Virus record (IMG/VR): IMGVR_UViG_3300042868_005481
Coordinates: 1 to 28,589 of that record
DNA: 28,589 nucleotides
Reading direction: 5' to 3' (one strand)
From: a virus
The notes under the pieces are model-generated. The model ran no database searches and was not told the DNA's origin. It saw only the letters and a list, made by a program, of their open reading frames with translations. The position numbers and the translations under genes are program-made. Below are positions 5,512 to 23,538 of this stretch, in pieces; position 1 is the first letter of the stretch, and each line of letters opens with the position of its first letter.

Positions 5512-6639
5512 TTATGTTGTTAAAAATTCTGTACTATCAAATTCTGCTCCGTCAAATTCGCCATCAGCAATAGTAAAAGTCCACTCGCCAAACCCAAAAC
5601 CATTCCAAACATCACTACCTGATTTTGCTTGTCCTTCAATTATTACCGACCATTCTCCGTTTGCATCAGGTAAAGCTTCTAATTGACCACCTACATTAAT
5701 ATCGTTAAAAATTAAAACGTTATCAGATAAATCAACAAAGTCAATTGGTAAAGCAGTTGCATTGCTATGTTTTTTTATGTAAGCATTGCCCATAAAACTT
5801 GTTATATTTTTATTAAAAAATAATCTTAAATAATTGTTTGTTTCGGTACTTGGTAAAGTAAAAATAGCACCATTTGAAAACTCTAATGTTTGTATTATTT
5901 CCAATCCCTCATACAATTGATAAACCCAATTGTAAAACTGACCTTGTGGATTAACTAAGAAATCACTATCTAAAAAGTTTGTATCTCCTTTTCGTTTGCC
6001 TTGTTTGTATTCCGATACAATTACTCTTTCACTATTTAAGTAAATCAAATCATAGTTAAACAATTCATTTAACCAACGCCCTAATGCAAAATCAACGGCA
6101 TCAATATTATATCTGTCTAAGTTGGTTGTAGTGTTTTTATAACGAACGAGTTTACCGCTTGTTTCAGTGTATTCTGAAAATTCGTTTTTATCTTCAATAT
6201 CTTGATGATAACATTTAGCAATTCTAATCGATTGAAAATATACATCACTTTTATTCTTAAAATCAAACCTACTTGATAATTCAGAATAATAATCAGTAAC
6301 GATAAAGCTATTTGAGTAATAAACATTATCGTTTATTAAATCCGTTATTTTAATATATAATTCTTTAGTATAAAAATCAGTTCCAATATTGCCAAACTCA
6401 AAATAAATATCGGTGTTTACTTCTGAATAATAAAAGTTTCCATCGATATTTTGAACTACTACACCGCAACTATCAATTAAATCTACTTGAATAGCACCAG
6501 CAAAAGAAATTCCTTTTGCATAACAAAAGAATGTTTCATTTGTTTTCTGTTGGATAAAACCCGAATAAAGCAAAGTAGCAACGTTTGGATTTGCGCTTTT
6601 CTTTGCCTTATTAAAGTCGTTTAAAAATAGTTTTATCAT
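5512..6639 (-). CDS. Tail-tip / baseplate structural protein (375 aa)
   Basis: A mixed alpha-beta and beta-rich 375-aa protein following the 859-aa tail-tip protein with an ATGA overlap. The N-terminal half is strand-rich (IQVDLIDSCGVVVQNIDGNFYYSEV) with a central aromatic-rich segment (NWVYQLYEGLEIIQTLEF). The end carries an Ig-like or carbohydrate-binding-looking stretch (EWSVIIEGQAKSGSDVWNGFGFGEW) and a short repeat-like tail (FDGAEFDSTEFLTT). Position and coupling suggest a baseplate or tail-fibre connector. I do not recognise the family. Confidence 0.62.
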   Translation of the reverse strand: MIKLFLNDFNKAKKSANPNVATLLYSGFIQQKTNETFFCYAKGISFAGAIQVDLIDSCGVVVQNIDGNFYYSEVNTDIYFEFGNIGTDFYTKELYIKITDLINDNVYYSNSFIVTDYYSELSSRFDFKNKSDVYFQSIRIAKCYHQDIEDKNEFSEYTETSGKLVRYKNTTTNLDRYNIDAVDFALGRWLNELFNYDLIYLNSERVIVSEYKQGKRKGDTNFLDSDFLVNPQGQFYNWVYQLYEGLEIIQTLEFSNGAIFTLPSTETNNYLRLFFNKNITSFMGNAYIKKHSNATALPIDFVDLSDNVLIFNDINVGGQLEALPDANGEWSVIIEGQAKSGSDVWNGFGFGEWTFTIADGEFDGAEFDSTEFLTT

Positions 6640-12564: not shown

Positions 12565-12699
12565 TTATTTAAAAATAGTTTGCAAAGGATTGTTTTTAAT
12601 AACTGCTTTTAAATATTTTTCAGAATCAACCAAATTAGGCAATTCTCTACATAATGCATTAAAAACATTATTATTTTGCTTTTTTACTTCTTTTTCCAT
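12565..12699 (-). CDS. Small protein (44 aa) before the chaperone-position gene
   Basis: ATG at 12699, one base after the upstream gene's stop; it ends TAA exactly abutting the next ATG. It encodes MEKEVKKQNNNVFNALCREL then PNLVDSEKYLKAVIKNNPLQ and TIFK, a charged, probably helical peptide. It fills the gap between neighbours perfectly and has normal codon composition, so I consider it real. With the 198-aa gene it may form a two-component tail assembly chaperone. Confidence 0.55.
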   Translation of the reverse strand: MEKEVKKQNNNVFNALCRELPNLVDSEKYLKAVIKNNPLQTIFK

Positions 12700-13147: not shown

Positions 13148-13337
13148 AGTTTTCACGCTCTTTTTTACAATCTAAACACTCCACCTTACCTACTACTAAA
13201 TTGGTAAGTAATATTTTAATCTGTTCTTTGTCTTTTTGGTTTGTGTTTGTTTCAATCCATTTTACTTGCTCCTCAAAGCATAAATCAATAAACTGCTCCG
13301 CATCACTTCCAAAAATATGTTTTCCGAATATATCCAT
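13023..13337 (-). CDS. Small phage protein with Cys pair (104 aa), overlaps next gene
   Basis: I start this at ATG 13337 (MDIFGKHIFGSDAEQFIDLC) rather than the TTG at 13358, because the TTG lies in a hairpin and the downstream ATG gives a clean N-terminus. Residues 1-65 look well folded, with a C-L-D-C pair (VECLDCKKERENYGN) that could bind metal. The last 40 residues are low-complexity, rich in Ser, Thr, Asn and Arg (TKRPRTTKRAKN), and lie in the segment also read by the next gene in another frame. It sits between major tail and tape measure genes. Function unknown. Confidence 0.55.
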   Translation of the reverse strand: MDIFGKHIFGSDAEQFIDLCFEEQVKWIETNTNQKDKEQIKILLTNLVVGKVECLDCKKERENYGNISKTISNEVATDTQSIDNAELSQGDNTKRPRTTKRAKN

Positions 13338-13357: not shown

Positions 13358-13387
13358 AAAGGCAACCAAATTTAATTGATTGCCTTT
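13358..13387 (-). terminator. Hairpin 20 bases before a tail gene, terminator or attenuator
   Basis: AAAGGCAA and TTGCCTTT form a perfect 8-bp stem (13358-13365 with 13380-13387) around a 14-base AT-rich loop. On the minus strand it is followed by a T-rich TTTTGTTT run, weaker than a standard terminator. The next ATG is at 13337. It could terminate transcription from the gene at 13436-13645, or regulate the tail genes that follow. Confidence 0.55.
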
Positions 13388-13415
13388 CATACTTGTTTTA
13401 TAACTTTACCTATTG

Positions 13416-13423
13416 CAAATATA
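13416..13423 (-). promoter_or_regulatory. Possible promoter -7 box (TATATTTG)
   Basis: The minus-strand octamer TATATTTG fits TAnnTTTG and lies 12 bases after the stop of the small gene at 13436-13645, just before the hairpin at 13358-13387. No TTG is present at the usual -33 distance, so it would be weak or activator-dependent. The same octamer occurs at 19383-19390 and 19739-19746. Confidence 0.3.
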
Positions 13424-13661: not shown

Positions 13662-13692
13662 AAAAAATCCTTAACTTTTACATTAAGGATTT
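13662..13692 (-). terminator. Intrinsic terminator after the major tail protein gene
   Basis: A perfect 10-bp stem, AAATCCTTAA with TTAAGGATTT (13665-13674 and 13683-13692), and an 8-base loop are followed on the minus strand by six T residues. It starts 22 bases after the stop codon at 13715. Partial termination here would explain how the major tail protein is made in excess over later tail proteins. Confidence 0.8.
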
Positions 13693-13714
13693 AATTTAGA
13701 ATTATTTTAAATTA

Positions 13715-15924: not shown

Positions 15925-17112
15925 TTACGCTTGAGTTAATGCAGTTATAGCATCAGAGAAATCACCATAAACAAACGCCCCATAATGATTAGATTTTACT
16001 CTTTGTACTAATCTTGCCTCAGCTAAGATAGTTACTAAGTTTTTAGTAAAGTCGTCATTTTCGTAACCTACGTTAATAGTTAATCCTTCTTTGAAACGTA
16101 CACCAGCTTTTGAAAAATCTCCAACTAAGAATTTATCAATAGTTACTCCAGTGTTTGCAACAACTCTAATACCCTCAACACTTGTACCATCTACACTTGA
16201 AAAAGGAGGCAATACATAATGTCCATCAGATGCTTTTGATAATTTCATTTTAGTAACATCAGTTGGGTGCATTACAATATAAGTAGGCTCAAACAAGTTA
16301 ACTCTTACTTGGTTAATTGCAGTAGCTAATACATCGTAATTTGTAGGCTCAGGAATAGCTAAAGCAAAAGCACCAGCACTCCACGCAGTAGCGTTAGTAA
16401 CAATACCAGTTAAATTAACAGTTAAACCAGTTCCATTCAATAATTGGTCGTCAATTCTTAAATTAATTAATTCTGTTAACTCTTGGTCGATTTCAGAACG
16501 TAACAAAGCAACATCATCAAGCATTTCTTTAGTTACTTTGATGTAAGCAGTTACTTTTTTAACGTTTGCAGATGCAACTACTAAATCAAAATCTGTTTGA
16601 GATTTTGCAGCTCCTTCAGCAGTCATTGCAGAACCACCCTCAACATTCTTTTGTTCTACCCATTCCCAAACGTTAGACATAATTGTTCCAACGTTAACCA
16701 ATTCTAAAATAAAAGGGTTACGTCTTACAATTCTTGTAATACCAGTTTCTCTTTCGGCTTGTGGTATTTGTCCAGTTGTGTTTGTAGAAAGTGCCATTGT
16801 ACCAACTGCTTTAAGTTGAATTTGTACACTTGCACCGCTTTTTTCTTTCATTGCTTTTAACTCATCAGCTTTTTCAGTCAATAATGATGTTAAATTTTCA
16901 GGTGCGTTTGACGGCGTTCCTTTAGTTTCAAGTTCTAATACTTGCAAAGCTAATTGTTCAACATTTTCTTTTAATGTTGCAACCTCTGCTCCTTTTGTTT
17001 CTAAGTCTTTAACCGCAGATAATACTTCGATTAATTCCGCTTTTGAAACGCTTTCGTTTTTCATTGCGTCGATTTTATCTCCCAACGCTTTAATGATTTC
17101 TTCTTGTGTCAT
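15925..17112 (-). CDS. Major capsid protein, HK97 fold (395 aa)
   Basis: The layout is typical of HK97-type capsid proteins. Residues 1-95 are a helical, Glu/Lys-rich delta (scaffolding) domain, followed by the capsid domain with 'LELVNVGTIMSNVWEWVEQ', AYIKVTKEMLDDVALLRSEID and the long spine-like helix, and the C-terminal DFSKAGVRFKEGLTINVGYE then EARLVQRVKSNHYGAFVYGD. A likely maturation cleavage is near residues 100-103 (QLKAVGTM), by analogy with HK97 where the delta domain is removed by the prohead protease. The protease gene is five bases upstream. No attempt was made to predict crosslinks. Start chosen at ATG 17112. Confidence 0.93.
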   Translation of the reverse strand: MTQEEIIKALGDKIDAMKNESVSKAELIEVLSAVKDLETKGAEVATLKENVEQLALQVLELETKGTPSNAPENLTSLLTEKADELKAMKEKSGASVQIQLKAVGTMALSTNTTGQIPQAERETGITRIVRRNPFILELVNVGTIMSNVWEWVEQKNVEGGSAMTAEGAAKSQTDFDLVVASANVKKVTAYIKVTKEMLDDVALLRSEIDQELTELINLRIDDQLLNGTGLTVNLTGIVTNATAWSAGAFALAIPEPTNYDVLATAINQVRVNLFEPTYIVMHPTDVTKMKLSKASDGHYVLPPFSSVDGTSVEGIRVVANTGVTIDKFLVGDFSKAGVRFKEGLTINVGYENDDFTKNLVTILAEARLVQRVKSNHYGAFVYGDFSDAITALTQA

Positions 17113-17954: not shown

Positions 17955-18064
17955 TTCTTAATTTCTTTTTTGTATTTAATCGCTTTTAACTTCTTATTCA
18001 TTTTATCTATAGCCTCTTTTTTAAGTTGCTCTTCAATTTCCTTTTGTGATAACTTTGTACTCAT
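17951..18064 (-). CDS. Small lysine-rich protein (37 aa) between portal and protease
   Basis: The 37-aa frame (MSTKLSQKEIEEQLKKEAID then KMNKKLKAIKYKKEIKK) starts inside the portal stop (ATGA) and ends inside the protease start (ATGA). It forms one long, highly charged helix with about a third lysine. Overlap at both ends makes translation very likely. It may be a scaffold or packaging accessory, or a coupling ORF; no family is recognised. Confidence 0.6.
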   Translation of the reverse strand: MSTKLSQKEIEEQLKKEAIDKMNKKLKAIKYKKEIKK

Positions 18065-19272
18065 AACCCTAACTTTGTTTTAAATTCATCACTCATTTTT
18101 TTAGCGTCAATTGGTGTTAAAGTTTGATTTTCTAAACCTAATTTAATTGCGTTTTGCATTTCGGTAAACGATTTAATTTTATCATTAACAACCGATTGCA
18201 TACACGCTAAATGGTCGTAACTTGCTATTAACTTTTCTCCTCGTTCAAACAATCCCCATTGACTTGTTAAACTATTCATCGTGTTTTTTGCAGTCGTTTG
18301 TATTGAGTTTTGAATGTAACTTATTAAACCTTGATTTTGATTTTCAAACGTGCTATCCTTAGCGAAATAATTCAATACATTTTTGCTCATTTCAAACGCA
18401 AGTAATACTTTGTTAGCATCGTCAGCAAACTGCTCATCTAAATACAATTTCTTCATATCGCTAACTAAGTGCCTTGCATCAATATTACGATTAGTTATAA
18501 TAGTTGAATTTACTTCTAACTTTGAATAAATATCTTTTCTATCATCATCTTGTATTTGAGCCTCGTTACCATCACTTGAATTCTTAACTAAATACTTTTG
18601 CGACATTTTAAGGTTTTTATTCTTAGACCTTAAATTTTCATCGATATTCTGCAATACTTTACAAACTCCTTTTACTCGGCTTTCACTTGTGAAAAATGAA
18701 TTATTTGTTAATCCGTTAGATAAATCATACAAAGGAATTAACTCACTTAATTTTAAATCGTATTGAGTACTATCTAAAGTATATTTAATAACTCTATCTC
18801 CAAATGCTTTTTTATCTTTATCTGTAACAATAAACTTGTCTAATTTATGAGCCTTGTTTAAATCTATTTCACTTGGAATAAGATTAAATATTGCCTTAGG
18901 TACATCGTTTAAAAACGCTTTACGTTCTAATATAAAATTAGTTCCAGCAGTTGACAAAAACCACATTTGTTGAAATAACCAATCGTTTTGACTTTGAAAA
19001 TAGTTAGGTTGTTGTAATAATTTAATATAAGGCGAGTTTTCAATTACTTTACCATTCTTATCAACGTGCTTTATTTCCATTTGAGAATAAAGAGCGGAAC
19101 GAATAGCACAAATAGTCATTAATACTGGATTGTCTAAAGACATTGCTAAGTATTTATCACTATTAACAAAGTCGTTACCGCCATCTAAAAAATGATATGA
19201 AAACTCACCAGCACGATTGCGTTCTACTTGAAATATAGTTCTACCAAATAATTTAATCGACTTTTCTACCAT
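18061..19272 (-). CDS. Portal protein, HK97-like (403 aa)
   Basis: Length and position between terminase and protease fit the dodecameric portal. Recognisable features include the N-terminal LDNPVLMTICAIRSALYSQM, the helix-rich LQQPNYFQSQNDWLFQQMWF (an 'L..PN....F' motif common to HK97-type portals), SELIPLYDLSNGLTNNSFFT (an analogue of the 'H.......GL.G.S' loop) and the C-terminal YIQNSIQTTAKNTMNSLTSQ. It forms the DNA channel at the capsid vertex. The ATG is only three bases after a terminator T run, so its translation start region is unusual: there is no space for a conventional ribosome binding site outside the hairpin. Confidence 0.85.
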   Translation of the reverse strand: MVEKSIKLFGRTIFQVERNRAGEFSYHFLDGGNDFVNSDKYLAMSLDNPVLMTICAIRSALYSQMEIKHVDKNGKVIENSPYIKLLQQPNYFQSQNDWLFQQMWFLSTAGTNFILERKAFLNDVPKAIFNLIPSEIDLNKAHKLDKFIVTDKDKKAFGDRVIKYTLDSTQYDLKLSELIPLYDLSNGLTNNSFFTSESRVKGVCKVLQNIDENLRSKNKNLKMSQKYLVKNSSDGNEAQIQDDDRKDIYSKLEVNSTIITNRNIDARHLVSDMKKLYLDEQFADDANKVLLAFEMSKNVLNYFAKDSTFENQNQGLISYIQNSIQTTAKNTMNSLTSQWGLFERGEKLIASYDHLACMQSVVNDKIKSFTEMQNAIKLGLENQTLTPIDAKKMSDEFKTKLGL

Positions 19273-19280
19273 AGCAAAAA

Positions 19281-19310
19281 AGCCTTAACCGAAATTAATC
19301 AGTTAAGGCT
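19281..19310 (-). terminator. Intrinsic terminator abutting the portal start codon
   Basis: A perfect 9-bp stem, AGCCTTAAC with GTTAAGGCT, with a 12-base loop, is followed on the minus strand by six T residues (down to 19276). ATG for the portal follows at 19272. It is a strong terminator by sequence, unusually placed directly before a structural gene. Confidence 0.8.
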
Positions 19311-19342
19311 ATTGTTTTAAAATTAGTTGTGTTTACGTTCAT
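19295..19342 (-). CDS. Possible leader peptide (15 aa) ending in the terminator loop
   Basis: ATG AAC GTA AAC opens the frame MNVNTTNFKTIALTD, whose TAA (19295-19297) lies in the loop of the terminator hairpin. A ribosome reaching this stop would cover the upstream stem arm and block hairpin formation, as in classical attenuation. The frame is short and could be chance; it has no run of one rare codon. Confidence 0.25.
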   Translation of the reverse strand: MNVNTTNFKTIALTD

Positions 19343-19382
19343 TTGTAATAGTTTGATGCGTCTTCACATCAATTAATTGCTA

Positions 19383-19416
19383 CAAATATATAAATAAATT
19401 ATTACATTGTATGTAA
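19383..19416 (-). promoter_or_regulatory. Promoter-like box with palindromic operator candidate
   Basis: TATATTTG (19383-19390, minus strand) matches TAnnTTTG. No TTG lies at -33; instead a perfect palindrome TTACAT-TGT-ATGTAA (19402-19416) covers positions 12-26 bases upstream of the box. This suggests a regulated promoter or operator that controls the leader RNA before the portal gene. Activity is inferred. Confidence 0.45.
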
Positions 19417-19429
19417 AATGTTGATTATT

Positions 19430-19570
19430 TTAAATATTTTTATTTGATGTATATGCGTAATAATATAATTCTTCTCCTTTTGGATAATACAAACGAGATA
19501 TCTTCATTGATTTATTTTTTTGAATAAAATAAAAATATTCACTTAATTTTACAAATCGAAGTATTTTCAT
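19430..19570 (-). CDS. Small hypothetical protein (46 aa)
   Basis: ATG 19570 opens MKILRFVKLSEYFYFIQKNK then SMKISRLYYPKGEELYYYAY and TSNKNI. It is basic and very tyrosine- and phenylalanine-rich, with alternating strand-like residues, and lies eight bases after the stop of the 46-aa gene upstream. No family is recognised. It sits in the terminase-portal gap, a place where phages often carry accessory genes. Confidence 0.45.
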   Translation of the reverse strand: MKILRFVKLSEYFYFIQKNKSMKISRLYYPKGEELYYYAYTSNKNI

Positions 19571-19577
19571 AATCTAA

Positions 19578-19718
19578 TTATTTTGTTATTTCTACTAACT
19601 TACCATTCTCATCAATATATTTTATATGATGTGGTTTAAATTTACTTTCTTCTAATTGTTTAGTTAATGTATTGCAAATATCAAAAGTTGTCGGTATTGG
19701 TTGTTTATTTTCTTTCAT
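19578..19718 (-). CDS. Small hypothetical protein (46 aa)
   Basis: ATG 19718 opens MKENKQPIPTTFDICNTLTK then QLEESKFKPHHIKYIDENGK and LVEITK. It is hydrophilic with a C-terminal IKYIDENGKLVEI beta-turn-beta segment that looks properly folded. A TATATTTG promoter-like box lies 21 bases upstream (19739-19746), just after the terminase stop. With the equally short gene that follows it forms a tiny operon. No function is recognised. Confidence 0.5.
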   Translation of the reverse strand: MKENKQPIPTTFDICNTLTKQLEESKFKPHHIKYIDENGKLVEITK

Positions 19719-19738: not shown

Positions 19739-19746
19739 CAAATATA
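19739..19746 (-). promoter_or_regulatory. Possible promoter -7 box (TATATTTG) after terminase
   Basis: Minus-strand TATATTTG fits TAnnTTTG and lies between the terminase stop and the 46-aa gene at 19578-19718. A TTG exists only 14 bases upstream, too close for the usual -33 spacing, so confidence is low. The octamer is the same as at 19383-19390 and 13416-13423. Confidence 0.3.
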
Positions 19747-19751
19747 GTAAT

Positions 19752-20951
19752 TTATATCGACAATCCTCTTGTTTTAACATACCAACTTACACCCATTCTA
19801 CAACAATCTAAAGCGTGGTCATTTTGGTTATCTTCTGGCACATCCATTTGAATACCTTGATACATTTTCCAGCTATAGTTTTCGTACTCATTCTCTAAAT
19901 CAATAGAACTTTTAGTATAATAAACATTGCACTTTTGTAGAGTTTCAATACCAGCGTTTATACTTCCATGTCCTTTTTGTGCAAATATTACATTATAACC
20001 GCTATTACGTAGCTTTGTACCCTCTGCTTTGTTTAATTCATTTCCGCTATCACAAATGTTTTCTTTTTGTTTTATAGTTCCTAATTTTTCAAACTCATCA
20101 GATAAAGTGCTTTCCATTTGATTCATTGGTTTATACAACCTTTGATGAAAGAAGAACGTTTTATCTCCATCAAATTTAAACTCAATATTTGCCGTAGGTG
20201 CTGAAAGTCCAAAATCGGTTGCGTAATAGCTTTGATAAGGTAAATCATAAAACGCTTTATCTTCTATTTGTTGCCAATTGCGAAATATTCGATTTGGTTT
20301 TTCTGCTTTTAAGCCTAACCCGTACACGCACCACATATATTCTGAGGCGGTGTTTTGTTGTATATTGTATTCCGTTGGTTCGTATGATAATATTTTTTTC
20401 TTTTGCTCTAATGGACAAAATGGATTGTCTTTAAATGTAGAATGAATTAAGGTTGCGTTATCTTGTTTTACAAGGTCATCACTCCAAAGTTTACCAACTG
20501 GATTGTAGTCCATAAAAACCGCAACACTACACCTCATATCTAATTGGTCGAATGTTTCTTTAGGCATTTTATAGAACTCATTAAACCAAAGATAGTCGGA
20601 ATGGTATCCGTGAACTTTTAACTCATCATCTGTTCCCTCAATATTTATAGTTGAACCATTTGGAAACGTGAAAATACTTTCGGTTTTATTAAAACGTACA
20701 CTTTCATAATTGTCTAAAGTTGGATAGTATTTCAACATATCTTGCAGAATAGTATCCTTACAATCTTTTTTAGTATTTCTAAAAACTGCTAATTTAGTAC
20801 GCTGATTTGTCCACGCTAATATCCAAAATATCTGTAAGATTGAAAACGTTTTACTTGAACGTGAAGAACCGCTATTGATAATATATTTATACTTTTTACT
20901 ATTTAAAGCGTTCCAGTTCTTTTCAAATACTGGTGTTGCATTAATCTTCAT
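19752..20951 (-). CDS. terL: Terminase large subunit (399 aa)
   Basis: The ATPase that pumps DNA into the prohead and cuts concatemers. The ATPase domain shows a Walker A variant G28-S-S-R-S-S-K-T35, Walker B ending in D119-Y-L-W-F-N-E125 with catalytic Glu, and a coupling motif STFKDNP (171-177). The nuclease domain has RNase H-like acidic positions: ATD246FGLS, CD301SGNE and ND378HALD382. The order and the SRSSKT form are typical of PBSX/SPP1-like large terminases. The start overlaps the small-subunit stop by 11 bases. Its length is normal for the family and nothing is missing. Confidence 0.94.
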   Translation of the reverse strand: MKINATPVFEKNWNALNSKKYKYIINSGSSRSSKTFSILQIFWILAWTNQRTKLAVFRNTKKDCKDTILQDMLKYYPTLDNYESVRFNKTESIFTFPNGSTINIEGTDDELKVHGYHSDYLWFNEFYKMPKETFDQLDMRCSVAVFMDYNPVGKLWSDDLVKQDNATLIHSTFKDNPFCPLEQKKKILSYEPTEYNIQQNTASEYMWCVYGLGLKAEKPNRIFRNWQQIEDKAFYDLPYQSYYATDFGLSAPTANIEFKFDGDKTFFFHQRLYKPMNQMESTLSDEFEKLGTIKQKENICDSGNELNKAEGTKLRNSGYNVIFAQKGHGSINAGIETLQKCNVYYTKSSIDLENEYENYSWKMYQGIQMDVPEDNQNDHALDCCRMGVSWYVKTRGLSI

Positions 20952-21435: not shown

Positions 21436-21606
21436 TTAAATTTTAATACTGACTTTAATTTTACCATTATTAAATTCAAACTCTTTTATTTCTAATTTCT
21501 GCATAAACTCAAATAAGCGTTCGTAATTAACGTTTTTTGATTTTCTATACTGAATTACTTGGGTAATAGAAACGTTTAAAATTTGCGCTAATTTGTAGTT
21601 ATTCCT
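21436..21606 (-). pseudogene. HTH regulator reading frame without a start codon
   Basis: The open frame reads RNNYKLAQILNVSITQVIQY then RKSKNVNYERLFEFMQKLEI and ends ...IKVSIKI before TAA. 'KLAQILNVSITQVIQYRKSKNVNYERLFEFM' is a good helix-turn-helix of the XRE/Cro type. No ATG, GTG or TTG lies before the HTH; the frame is closed upstream by TAG (21622-21624). AGG AAT AAC TAC occupies the spot where ATG AAT AAC TAC would give a natural start overlapping the stop of the 103-aa gene. Either the start was lost (T to G), it uses a non-standard start, or it is made by +1 frameshift from the upstream gene. It lies beside the late promoter, so it may have regulated it. Confidence 0.5.
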
Positions 21607-21910
21607 CTTTTTTAGTTTCCGCTACTGAATTAGATGTTAAACAATTTTTGTTTTCGTCAAATTTTTTAATTTGAAAGAAACCTATTCTTTTTAAACTTAA
21701 CAATTCTTTGATTGTCATTTTAGATAACAATGTATCATCGCAAATAAAAGATATTTCGTAAGTAATGTTTCCTCTTTTTATTTCATATGTAAATATTTGT
21801 GAATCATAACAAACAAACTTTGCTTTACTATAATACATTTTAAATAATCTAAATTCCTTTTCCTCTTCTTGTAAAAACTTCTTTAATCTAATTTGAAATA
21901 AATTTTCCAT
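21599..21910 (-). CDS. Hypothetical protein (103 aa), upstream partner of HTH frame
   Basis: An intact 103-aa protein: a helical charged N-terminus (LKKFLQEEEKEFRLFKMYYS), a beta-rich middle (FVCYDSQIFTYEIKRGNITY) and an acidic/Asn-rich end (NSVAETKKEE). It has three Cys and no signal peptide. The family is not recognised. It follows a good promoter (21935-21966), and its stop overlaps the HTH frame, so the pair looks like a small regulatory operon between the HNH and terminase genes. Confidence 0.6.
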   Translation of the reverse strand: MENLFQIRLKKFLQEEEKEFRLFKMYYSKAKFVCYDSQIFTYEIKRGNITYEISFICDDTLLSKMTIKELLSLKRIGFFQIKKFDENKNCLTSNSVAETKKEE

Positions 21911-21934
21911 TTTTTATAAATTTTTAATTTTTAT

Positions 21935-21966
21935 CAAATTTACTAAATTGTTTTAATACTACCAAA
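21935..21966 (-). promoter_or_regulatory. Bacteroidota-type promoter before the 103-aa / HTH pair
   Basis: TTTG (21963-21966), 20 bases, TAAATTTG (21935-21942) on the minus strand fit the consensus well. The sequence around the -33 element (plus-strand ACCAAACTTTT) is identical to that at the promoter near 26783, suggesting a shared promoter class or recognition by the same factor. It lies in the 80-base gap after the HNH gene. Confidence 0.6.
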
Positions 21967-21990
21967 CTTTTGAGTTAATTTAGAATAGTT

Positions 21991-22341
21991 TTAAATAGTC
22001 TCAAAATAAAATTTCACTTCAATATCGTTTTCAGAAACTAATCCGTATTTTTTAGCGAATTTGTATTGAGTTGAATATTGATTTAGTGAATTTACAAATT
22101 GTTTTATATTTTCTCTAAATTGCTCCAAAGTGTATGAGTTCTTTTGAATATTGCAACTCGGACAACTTGGATTGTAATTTTGTAAGTTTTCATTTTCTGG
22201 TTTCTCACAAGTTCCATTCCGCCAATTTCTAACTATTGGTTCAATATGGTCTGCGTGCCATCCTTTTGTAAGCTCACAACCGCAATAAGCACATTTCCCA
22301 TTATATTTATCGAAAATTATTTGTCTTTCTTCTTTTTTCAT
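21991..22341 (-). CDS. HNH endonuclease (116 aa)
   Basis: Zinc-binding C17-A-Y-C20 and C60-P-S-C63 pairs surround the HNH core: H29-A-D31-H32-I-E-P, then ENLQNYNPSCPSCNIQKNSY with N52/N56 and N64. This is the standard betabetaalpha-metal nuclease of phage HNH enzymes. HNH genes near the terminase (e.g. HK97 gp74) stimulate terminase cutting of DNA ends, so a packaging role is likely; a free-standing homing nuclease is the alternative. It starts in an ATGA overlap with the 51-aa gene. Confidence 0.88.
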   Translation of the reverse strand: MKKEERQIIFDKYNGKCAYCGCELTKGWHADHIEPIVRNWRNGTCEKPENENLQNYNPSCPSCNIQKNSYTLEQFRENIKQFVNSLNQYSTQYKFAKKYGLVSENDIEVKFYFETI

Positions 22342-22493
22342 ATCTGCACCGCTTTATAATAATAATTTTTGTTTCTTTTTAGTGTTTGGTATTCGTGGAA
22401 TGTGATTAACTCAAAACTTTCTTCAAATGTTACTTTGTCAATTTTAATTAGTTTGAGTTTTGTTTCCATTGGTAAAAGATATTGTTTTGCCAT
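22338..22493 (-). CDS. Small hypothetical protein (51 aa)
   Basis: ATG 22493 overlaps the NinG stop (TAATG) and TGA overlaps the HNH start (ATGA). The frame is MAKQYLLPMETKLKLIKIDK then VTFEESFELITFHEYQTLKR and NKNYYYKAVQI, with amphipathic strands and a helix. Tight coupling on both sides supports translation. No family is recognised; position suggests it belongs with NinG/HNH nucleic-acid functions. Confidence 0.6.
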   Translation of the reverse strand: MAKQYLLPMETKLKLIKIDKVTFEESFELITFHEYQTLKRNKNYYYKAVQI

Positions 22494-23122
22494 TAGTTAT
22501 ATATTCCTATCATTTTATTAAATTGACGTCTTAAATCTATTCTTTGTATTGAATTATAGGTTTTATTCTCTAACTTTAAATGTTTAACTATTGACCTTGC
22601 TATTGTGATTTTTTCTTTTAGTTCGTCAGTAGTTAGTTTTAATATTGGATATTCTGATTTAAGTCGTAAAACATAATCTTTTAAACCAATTCCGTAATTT
22701 TCTTCAATACCATTTATAAAATTGATTTGGTCGCCAGATAAGTATTGATTTGCGTAAACTGATTGTGCGTAAATATTTAAAAGATTAAATCTTAATGTTG
22801 CGTTACTTCCAACAGAATAAAAATGTCCAGCGTCGAATTTATCGTTTAAAGGTTTACCGCTTGAAATACATTTAAAGTCTTTATCTATTAAACGAATTAT
22901 TGTGTTAATTTCTTTTTGTAGTAACTTTTCAAAATCGCTTTTAGTCATTAACTTTTCTTTAATCTCTTTTTTTTCTTTTTGCCATTGCTTTGCTTTTTGC
23001 TTTTCCTTTTGAAGTTTTACACTTTCGTTAAATGCTTTTATACATTCGTCATCAGATAAACAAAACTTTTGATTGAAATATTTAGCGTCGAATTTTGTTT
23101 TATGATATTGGCATTTAGGCAT
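22493..23122 (-). CDS. ninG: NinG/Rap-like recombination endonuclease (209 aa)
   Basis: Matches the lambda NinG (Rap) family, which resolves branched and Holliday-type DNA during recombination. Visible are an N-terminal Cys cluster (C4, C21, C27), a long Lys/Glu/Gln helix (33-58), then the core C85-I-S-S-G-K followed by D97-A-G-H-F-Y-S-V-G and RFNLLNIYAQSVYANQYLSG. In lambda-type proteins the core pair is CISCG; here the second Cys is Ser88, so that zinc site may be changed. The gene belongs to the early or middle region with ERF, as in lambdoid phages. Overlaps the next gene by one base. Confidence 0.83.
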   Translation of the reverse strand: MPKCQYHKTKFDAKYFNQKFCLSDDECIKAFNESVKLQKEKQKAKQWQKEKKEIKEKLMTKSDFEKLLQKEINTIIRLIDKDFKCISSGKPLNDKFDAGHFYSVGSNATLRFNLLNIYAQSVYANQYLSGDQINFINGIEENYGIGLKDYVLRLKSEYPILKLTTDELKEKITIARSIVKHLKLENKTYNSIQRIDLRRQFNKMIGIYN

Positions 23123-23124
23123 AA

Positions 23125-23538
23125 TTAAAAGTATTGCATTATTTCGTTTTCTATATTCTCATCGGAAATTCCCAACCATTTAGAAATAGTATCTTTTGTT
23201 TTTTCGTAAAGTTCACTAAATTCTGTTTCTTCCATATTTGAGAATGAAATTGACTTTGCAACTTTTAATATTTCGCCAGTAATTTTGTTAACCACTTCAT
23301 CATAAAAACCGCTTACAATTGCAATATCTCTACGCATATCGTTTAAACTTCTGTAATCTTGTTGGTTTTCAAATGCTAACTTCATTAAGGCAAAGTACTT
23401 TTTATGAAATTTTAAATTACGTTTCTTTGTGTACTCAATTTCAAACTCCTCATTCATTGGAATTTTACAATAGTTTTCAAGGTCTGAATCGTAAACTGGT
23501 AACAACCCTCTTGGTGTTTTTATTACAAGTAATTTCAT
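23125..23538 (-). CDS. DUF1367-like phage protein (137 aa)
   Basis: 'RGLLPVYDSDLENYCKIPMNEEFEIEYTKKRNLKFHKKYFALMKLAFENQQ' (residues about 10-60) has the 'R..KFH.KYFALL.L.F' signature of DUF1367, a family of lambdoid-phage proteins of unknown biochemical role. The remainder is helical with an acidic end (ENIENEIMQYF). It precedes ninG by two bases, matching the arrangement of nin-region accessory recombination genes. Function is unknown; an association with recombination is inferred from neighbours. Confidence 0.68.
   Translation of the reverse strand: MKLLVIKTPRGLLPVYDSDLENYCKIPMNEEFEIEYTKKRNLKFHKKYFALMKLAFENQQDYRSLNDMRRDIAIVSGFYDEVVNKITGEILKVAKSISFSNMEETEFSELYEKTKDTISKWLGISDENIENEIMQYF

What the first reader, a model, noticed from the sequence alone, without database searches (positions are those of the whole stretch)
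19276..19416. Attenuator-like leader between terminase and portal genes
A promoter-like box with a perfect 15-base palindrome is followed by a 6-bp hairpin, a 15-codon ORF and a strong terminator whose T run ends three bases before the portal ATG. The leader stop codon lies in the terminator loop, so a translating ribosome would cover the upstream stem arm and let RNA polymerase pass. This would make head-gene expression depend on leader translation, or require an antiterminator. A terminator placed directly at a structural gene start is unusual.
Basis: partly seen in the sequence, partly recalled or inferred. Interest (0 to 1): 0.72.

Follow-up and report, generated by a model that had tools for sequence, protein, structure and literature searches.

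The report
Late-gene switch leader of Bacteroidota phages
Many phages of Bacteroidota start their head-gene operon with the same layout, a promoter, a small conserved RNA hairpin and often a strong transcription stop signal just before the first structural gene, which looks like an undescribed RNA-based switch for late genes, although nobody has tested it.

Summary
The sequence features are largely as described, and the terminator is by far the strongest in the window (-17.4 kcal/mol). Two details are wrong: the 'perfect 15-base palindrome' is 6+3+6 and not conserved, and the hairpin pairs 7-8 bp, not 6. Comparison changes the interpretation. Of 63 related portal loci, 60 have a Bacteroidota-type promoter followed at once by a short hairpin: 17 with a GUGAAGNNGC cap (all with a terminator) and 43 with a GNRA cap (4 with a terminator). 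The GUGAAGNNGC hairpin covaries strongly, is absent from Rfam, and recurs in unrelated Bacteroidota phages before portal, scaffold-like, head-protease and tape-measure genes, up to four times per genome. A pattern scan of 84,980 bacterial and archaeal genomes gave only seven scattered hits, none in a Bacteroidota record. The 15-codon leader ORF is not general: 11 of 29 non-redundant hairpin-terminator leaders have no ATG, and one relative has AAG in its place with flanking bases kept. I therefore favour an RNA-element (put/boxB/LoaP-like) antitermination leader for late operons over leader-peptide attenuation. Antitermination itself is inferred. No antiterminator was found, and a 5'-UTR stabiliser plus an independent attenuator is the main rival.

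The parts
19383..19390 (-). -7 promoter box TATATTTG (Bacteroidota TAnnTTTG type); predicted start about 19378
   Evidence: Sequence. Such a box precedes the hairpin in 60 of 63 related portal loci. Start site inferred, not measured.
19402..19416 (-). TTACAT-ACA-ATGTAA imperfect palindrome upstream of the -7 box
   Evidence: not conserved in L002, L004 and others, so probably not part of the core device.
19353..19372 (-). Conserved leader hairpin TTGATGTGAAGACGCATCAA
   Evidence: Covariance model R1 hit 19347-19373, E 1.6e-7 (a near-identical sequence is in the model). Model built from 37 sequences with covariation score 0.541 against 0.118 +/- 0.022 shuffled (set filtered for pairing). Unconditioned test: 15 of 27 hits have 4 or more extra pairs.
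19358..19367 (-). Invariant hairpin cap GTGAAGNNGC (here GTGAAGACGC), hexaloop GAAGNN closed by U-G
   Evidence: Alignment A1 (the cap was part of the search pattern); U-A closing pair in L004, L066 and MT835612.
19350..19352 (-). ACY trinucleotide directly 3' of the hairpin
   Evidence: C is at least 90% conserved in A1; not part of any search pattern.
19329..19340 (-). Linear motif GAACGTAAACAC (consensus about GAACGWAAAAAC), overlaps the leader start codon
   Evidence: Motif discovery on 29 non-redundant linkers: log-likelihood 60.6 against 30.6-39.9 shuffled; present in only about half of the leaders.
19295..19342 (-). 15-codon leader ORF MNVNTTNFKTIALTD*
   Evidence: conserved as an open frame in the window's clade, absent in 11 of 29 non-redundant leaders.
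19281..19310 (-). Intrinsic terminator stem-loop, 12 bp, loop of 6, -17.4 kcal/mol
   Evidence: a terminator is present in all 17 related portal loci with this hairpin type.
19276..19281 (-). U-tract of the terminator, ending three bases before the portal ATG
   Evidence: Sequence.
18061..19272 (-). Portal protein gene, first gene after the leader
   Evidence: PHROG portal 8.9e-5; Pfam Phage_portal 4.9e-7, below the curated cut-off; 61% identity to annotated portal proteins of Flavobacterium phages.
19752..20951 (-). Terminase large subunit gene, upstream unit

Best explanation
This is the leader of the phage's late (head) operon. A Bacteroidota-type promoter starts an RNA of about 100 nt that first forms a small conserved hairpin (cap GUGAAGNNGC, followed by ACY and often GAACGWAAAAAC) and then an intrinsic terminator just before the portal start codon. 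By default RNA polymerase stops there. When a factor is recruited through the hairpin (a phage or host protein, or RNA polymerase itself), the polymerase becomes terminator-resistant and transcribes the portal and downstream head and tail genes. Shown here by comparison: the architecture, covariation of the hairpin, its repeated position at starts of late structural genes in unrelated phages, its retention at some late genes without a terminator, its apparent rarity in host genomes, and the non-generality of the leader ORF. Inferred: promoter activity, default termination, antitermination and the factor.
For: Of 63 related portal loci, 60 carry promoter plus hairpin; all 17 with the GUGAAGNNGC cap have a terminator. 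Unrelated phages with the same layout have it before portal, scaffold-like (phrog_5824) or head-protease-like genes. The hairpin covaries on 5 of 7 pairs. In a search that did not require pairing, 15 of 27 hits have 4-5 extra pairs, and these are the ones with terminator and late gene. Up to four copies occur per phage genome, including hairpins without a terminator before a tape-measure gene, as expected if the hairpin sets a processive state. A genome scan found only 7 scattered hits, none in a Bacteroidota record. A precedent with the same parts list (leader hairpin plus intrinsic terminator) is LoaP on the dfn operon (PMC12691694), and RNA-only antitermination is known for HK022 put (PMC9378689).
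Against: No experiment was available and no factor was found: no NusG paralog in 21 phage records, no small protein shared by all hairpin-bearing phages, and the protein at the lambda-Q-like gene position (21599-21910) has only three relatives. Most GNRA-cap leaders (39 of 43) have no terminator, so that hairpin class must do something else or act on distant terminators. The element was not found by model R1 in several cultured phages examined (Freya, Danklef, phi17:1, 11b). The hairpin is much simpler than put RNA.
Confidence: 0.52

Rival explanations
1. The hairpin is a 5'-UTR element of late mRNAs (protects the 5' end or helps translation start), and the terminator is an independent, constitutive partial attenuator that lowers or delays portal expression.
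For: 60 of 63 portal loci keep a hairpin close to the promoter although most lack the terminator. Without a terminator the hairpin lies about 10-17 nt upstream of the structural-gene ATG.
Against: All 17 portal loci with the GUGAAGNNGC cap have a terminator against 4 of 43 with the GNRA cap (phylogenetically not independent). The conserved cap plus ACY is more specific than a generic stabiliser needs. Other TAnnTTTG promoters in the window (19746, 21942) lack it.
Confidence: 0.25
2. Translation-coupled attenuation: a ribosome on the 15-codon leader ORF covers the terminator's upstream arm and lets RNA polymerase pass.
For: In the window's clade nearly every frame is open into the terminator, and its ATG sits where the portal ATG sits in terminator-less relatives. 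13 of 18 non-redundant leaders with an ATG are open into the 5' arm, 8.0 expected. In L009, L010, L152 and L408 the frame runs through the terminator to a stop overlapping the portal start (TAATG).
Against: 11 of 29 non-redundant leaders have no ATG; L112/L137 have AAG in its place with neighbouring bases kept. The motif ACAACAC is read in different frames in different leaders, so bases rather than peptide are kept. No run of regulatory codons is seen.
Confidence: 0.14
3. The terminated transcript of about 100 nt is itself a trans-acting small RNA, and readthrough to the portal is incidental.
For: Compact promoter-hairpin-terminator unit of about 103 nt.
Against: Beyond the hairpin cap and ACY the sequence differs widely between phages, and the unit sits at structural-gene starts. 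Terminator-less copies would produce no separate RNA.
Confidence: 0.05
4. Chance terminator-like sequence without function.
For: None specific.
Against: Fold z-score -7.2, strongest site in the window, terminator retained through sequence divergence in relatives.
Confidence: 0.02

Closest known systems
Bacillus velezensis LoaP antitermination at the difficidin (dfn) operon leader (PMC12691694)
   Same: Small RNA hairpin in the 5' leader followed by an intrinsic terminator before an operon; there the hairpin is needed for readthrough.
   Different: LoaP binds a UNCG-type hairpin and is a NusG paralog; here the caps are GAAGNN or GNRA, the operons are phage late genes, and no NusG domain was found in 21 phage records.
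HK022 put RNA (PMC9378689)
   Same: Promoter-proximal structured RNA; persistent antitermination would explain hairpins kept without a nearby terminator.
   Different: put is about 70 nt with two stem-loops and controls early genes; here one short hairpin before late genes.
Lambda-type N/nut boxB antitermination
   Same: Short hairpin plus a linear motif; the GAAGNN loop resembles the GAAGA boxB loop (resemblance from memory, a lead only).
   Different: boxA precedes boxB in nut, here the linear motif follows the hairpin; no N-like protein identified; late rather than early operon.
Lambda-type late control: pR', leader, tR', Q (PMC6606751)
   Same: Late promoter, short leader, terminator, late operon; the window also has the lambda-like order NinB/Orf, NinG, small genes, terminase.
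   Different: Q is loaded through DNA within the promoter; here the conserved element is transcribed RNA and no conserved upstream DNA motif was found.
Amino-acid operon attenuators (trp type)
   Same: Leader ORF overlapping a terminator in the window's clade.
   Different: No regulatory codon run; ORF missing in many members; the conserved hairpin does not compete with the terminator.

Membership tests
Translation-coupled (leader-peptide) attenuator | Translated leader ORF overlapping or abutting the terminator, conserved with it | tested here: not met
   11 of 29 non-redundant leaders lack any ATG; AAG in L112/L137. Met only within the window's clade.
Translation-coupled (leader-peptide) attenuator | Mutually exclusive antiterminator and terminator pairing, or regulatory codons | tested here: not met
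   In the window leader the MFE and centroid folds form the hairpin and the terminator together; no codon runs in the peptides.
LoaP/UpxY/RfaH NusG-paralog system | NusG-paralog gene with the target operon or its genome | tested here: not met
   PF02357 absent from 21 phage records while control genomes ring. A host-encoded paralog is not excluded.
LoaP-type leader | UNCG-type hairpin bound by LoaP | tested here: not met
   Caps are GAAGNN or GNRA.
HK022 put RNA | Two stem-loops in about 70 nt acting on RNA polymerase directly | tested here: not met
   One conserved hairpin only; action on polymerase not testable here.
Lambda N/nut | boxA then boxB hairpin in the leader | tested here: inconclusive
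   The hairpin starts only 3-20 nt after the -7 box, leaving little room for a boxA; no dedicated boxA search was made. A different linear motif lies 3' of the hairpin.
Lambda N/nut | N protein binding the hairpin | not testable with these tools
   N-like proteins are short and diverge fast; the shared-protein search gave none.
Lambda Q late control | Late promoter, short leader, terminator, late operon | tested here: met
   (sequence layout only).
Lambda Q late control | Q protein and promoter-embedded binding site | tested here: inconclusive
   Orphan 103-aa gene at the Q-like position has only three relatives; no conserved upstream DNA motif.
Described RNA family (Rfam 15) | Match at the gathering score | tested here: not met
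   No match in nine sources; only sub-threshold hits in the leader.

The most novel reading that the evidence does not exclude
A new family of phage RNA elements, a hairpin with a GUGAAGNNGC cap followed by ACY and often GAACGWAAAAAC, loads a processive antitermination state at late promoters of Bacteroidota phages, with the terminator before the first structural gene as the late-gene timing gate.
Probability: 0.42. Interest if true: 0.82.

Novelty: new variant of a known kind. Interest (0 to 1): 0.66.

Why it matters
How phages of Bacteroidota time their late genes appears little studied: the searches of open papers made here found nothing on antitermination in them. A small, portable leader with a clear covariance signature makes the question directly testable in reporter strains. 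It would also mark late operons in metagenomic phage genomes and give a handle for finding the factor that acts on Bacteroidota RNA polymerase, which uses an unusual primary sigma factor.

Tried and rejected
Leader-peptide attenuation as the general mechanism: rejected by missing start codons. The 15-base palindrome as an operator: not conserved. Known RNA family: none in Rfam. Host-derived element: the genome scan gave seven scattered, non-Bacteroidota hits; caveat, one exact pattern only. Phage NusG paralog: none. Shared small protein as antiterminator: only structural or replication genes and HNH-type or patchy families are shared. Protein at the lambda-Q position (21599-21910): only three relatives. 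BLAST of the leader against phage records: matches cover AT-rich promoter sequence and were not informative. R1 in further cultured-phage or gut records: only weak hits in MT835612, whose portal leader carries a variant hairpin. Literature searches on Bacteroidota phage antitermination or Flavobacterium phage transcription: nothing relevant; search 100 served to find the lambda Q and HK022 put papers used for comparison.

Full report
WHAT IS IN THE WINDOW. The window is an IMG/VR phage fragment with its genes mostly on the minus strand. Terminase large subunit (19752-20951), portal (18061-19272) and major capsid (15925-17112) were identified by PHROGs and Pfam. The portal is 61% identical to those of cultured Flavobacterium phages (Muminvirus, Lillamyvirus). 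Between terminase and portal the minus strand reads: -7 box TATATTTG (19390-19383), hairpin TTGATGTGAAGACGCATCAA (19372-19353), ORF MNVNTTNFKTIALTD* (19342-19295), terminator (19310-19281, 12 bp, -17.4 kcal/mol), U-tract to 19276, portal ATG at 19272. The leader folds 7.2 SD better than shuffles, and the terminator is the strongest in the window, -17.6 against -10.0 for the next.

RELATIVES OF THE SAME PORTAL. A portal search in IMG/VR gave 72 loci, 63 with upstream sequence. In 60 of the 63 a TAnnTTTG-type box is followed at once by a short hairpin. In 17 the cap is GUGAAGNNGC (the window's type) and every one has a terminator before the portal. In 43 the hairpin is capped by a GNRA-like loop (GUGA, GAGA, GCGA, GGGA, some with one extra base), and only 4 of these have a terminator. 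Shuffled sequence gives as long a GNRA stem in about 5% of trials per leader. Without a terminator the hairpin lies about 10-17 nt upstream of the portal ATG; with one, linker and terminator lie between hairpin and portal. The cultured Muminvirus and Lillamyvirus phages have the GNRA form without terminator.

THE SAME ELEMENT IN UNRELATED PHAGES. Pattern scans (promoter plus GUGAAGNNGC, with or without a T-run) together with the portal loci gave about 48 genuine leaders after removing chance hits. Most carry a terminator whose stem ends 8-18 nt (up to 36) before a start codon. The genes are portals of several families, scaffold-like proteins (phrog_5824) and head-protease-like proteins. In one search that did not require pairing, 15 of 27 hits had 4-5 extra base pairs around the cap, 11 had 0-2 and one had 3. 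In the 37-sequence alignment (filtered for at least three extra pairs, so partly conditioned; many rows were also found with a pattern fixing AUG/CAU around the cap) five of seven pairs show changes on both sides and the covariation score is 0.541 against 0.118 shuffled. The closing U-G pair appears as U-A in L004, L066 and MT835612. The C of ACY after the hairpin is at least 90% conserved, and about half of the leaders carry GAACGWAAAAAC further on.

COPY NUMBER AND SPECIFICITY. The covariance model finds the element in 28 of 37 phage records, usually once, up to four times. In G023 it precedes a small HNH-like gene, the portal (with terminator), the tape measure gene and a 289-aa gene; three of these four have no terminator. 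In G008 a second hairpin-terminator leader precedes a small gene inside the late region. A scan of 84,980 bacterial and archaeal genomes returned seven hits, none in a Bacteroidota record. This suggests an element of phages rather than hosts, with the caveat that only one exact pattern was scanned. Rfam has no match.

THE LEADER ORF. In the window's clade nearly every frame is open into the terminator, usually ending in the loop or 3' arm (L098 and L113 end in the 5' arm, L005 just before the stem). Across 29 non-redundant hairpin-terminator leaders, 11 have no ATG before the terminator, and two more have only two codons. Of 18 with an ATG, 13 are open into the 5' arm against 8.0 expected (P about 0.015). 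L112 and L137 replace ATG by AAG but keep GAACGTAAAAAC. The base motif ACAACAC occurs in different reading frames in different leaders. The leader ORF is therefore optional. In a few leaders (L009, L010, L152, L408) the frame runs through the terminator to a TAATG overlap with the portal start, so translation may contribute locally.

MECHANISM. Because the promoter and hairpin lie upstream of the terminator, and relatives use the same promoter for the portal directly, expression from this promoter must come by readthrough. A conserved hairpin between promoter and terminator, kept at some late genes without a terminator, fits RNA-loaded processive antitermination best. LoaP on the dfn leader has the same parts list (PMC12691694); HK022 put shows that RNA alone can do it (PMC9378689); lambda Q controls late genes through a promoter-leader-terminator layout (PMC6606751). 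The element does not pass the membership tests of any of them in full: no NusG paralog in 21 phage records, no second stem-loop, no conserved promoter motif, no shared candidate protein. Promoter activity, termination, antitermination and the factor are all inferred. The main rival is a 5'-UTR stabiliser or translation element with an independent attenuator.

VERDICT. The RNA element appears undescribed within the sources searched (Rfam 15 and open-access papers).

Noticed in passing
window 13358-13423, minus strand: A second promoter-like TATATTTG (13423-13416) is followed by a 12-bp stem with a 6-base loop (AAAGGCAATCAA-TTAAAT-TTGGTTGCCTTT, read by eye) and a weak T-run before the gene at 13337; it lacks the conserved hairpin.
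   Followed up: partly
window 13667-13700, minus strand: Terminator-like ATCCTTAA-TGTAAAAG-TTAAGGAT plus TTTTTTG between the 309-aa gene and a small ORF (about -8.7 kcal/mol).
   Followed up: no
L077 (Flavobacterium phage filifjonk9-1) 13861-14015: Promoter, hairpin TAATGAAGTGAGACGCATTA, then a terminator-like hairpin containing CGTCTCAC, complementary to the first hairpin's GTGAGACG: a possible kissing interaction or riboregulator upstream of gp038.
   Followed up: no
L080 (Tenacibaculum phage JQ), upstream of portal at 2914: A terminator (GTCTAAGC..GTTTAGGC plus TTTTTTT) abuts the portal ATG, with an unrelated leader: possible independent case of a terminator at the portal start.
   Followed up: partly
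window 21599-23538, minus strand: Lambda-like order NinB/Orf (23125-23538), NinG/Rap (22493-23122), HNH (21991-22341), orphan 103-aa protein (21599-21910, three relatives), then terminase; the orphan lies where Q lies in lambda.
   Followed up: partly
L009, L010, L152, L153, L181, L408 leaders: The leader ORF runs through the terminator to a stop overlapping the portal start (TAATG), suggesting translational coupling in these phages.
   Followed up: partly
window 19430-19718, minus strand: Two 46-aa ORFs between terminase and the leader, with their own TATATTTG box at 19746; no family match for 19578-19718.
   Followed up: partly
L461 (MT835612, human gut phage) 6013-6039 and 12626-12652: Variant hairpin GCGTAT-GAAGTT-ATACGC followed by AACC upstream of the portal, and a second weak copy at 12626: the element may extend to gut Bacteroidota phages.
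   Followed up: partly
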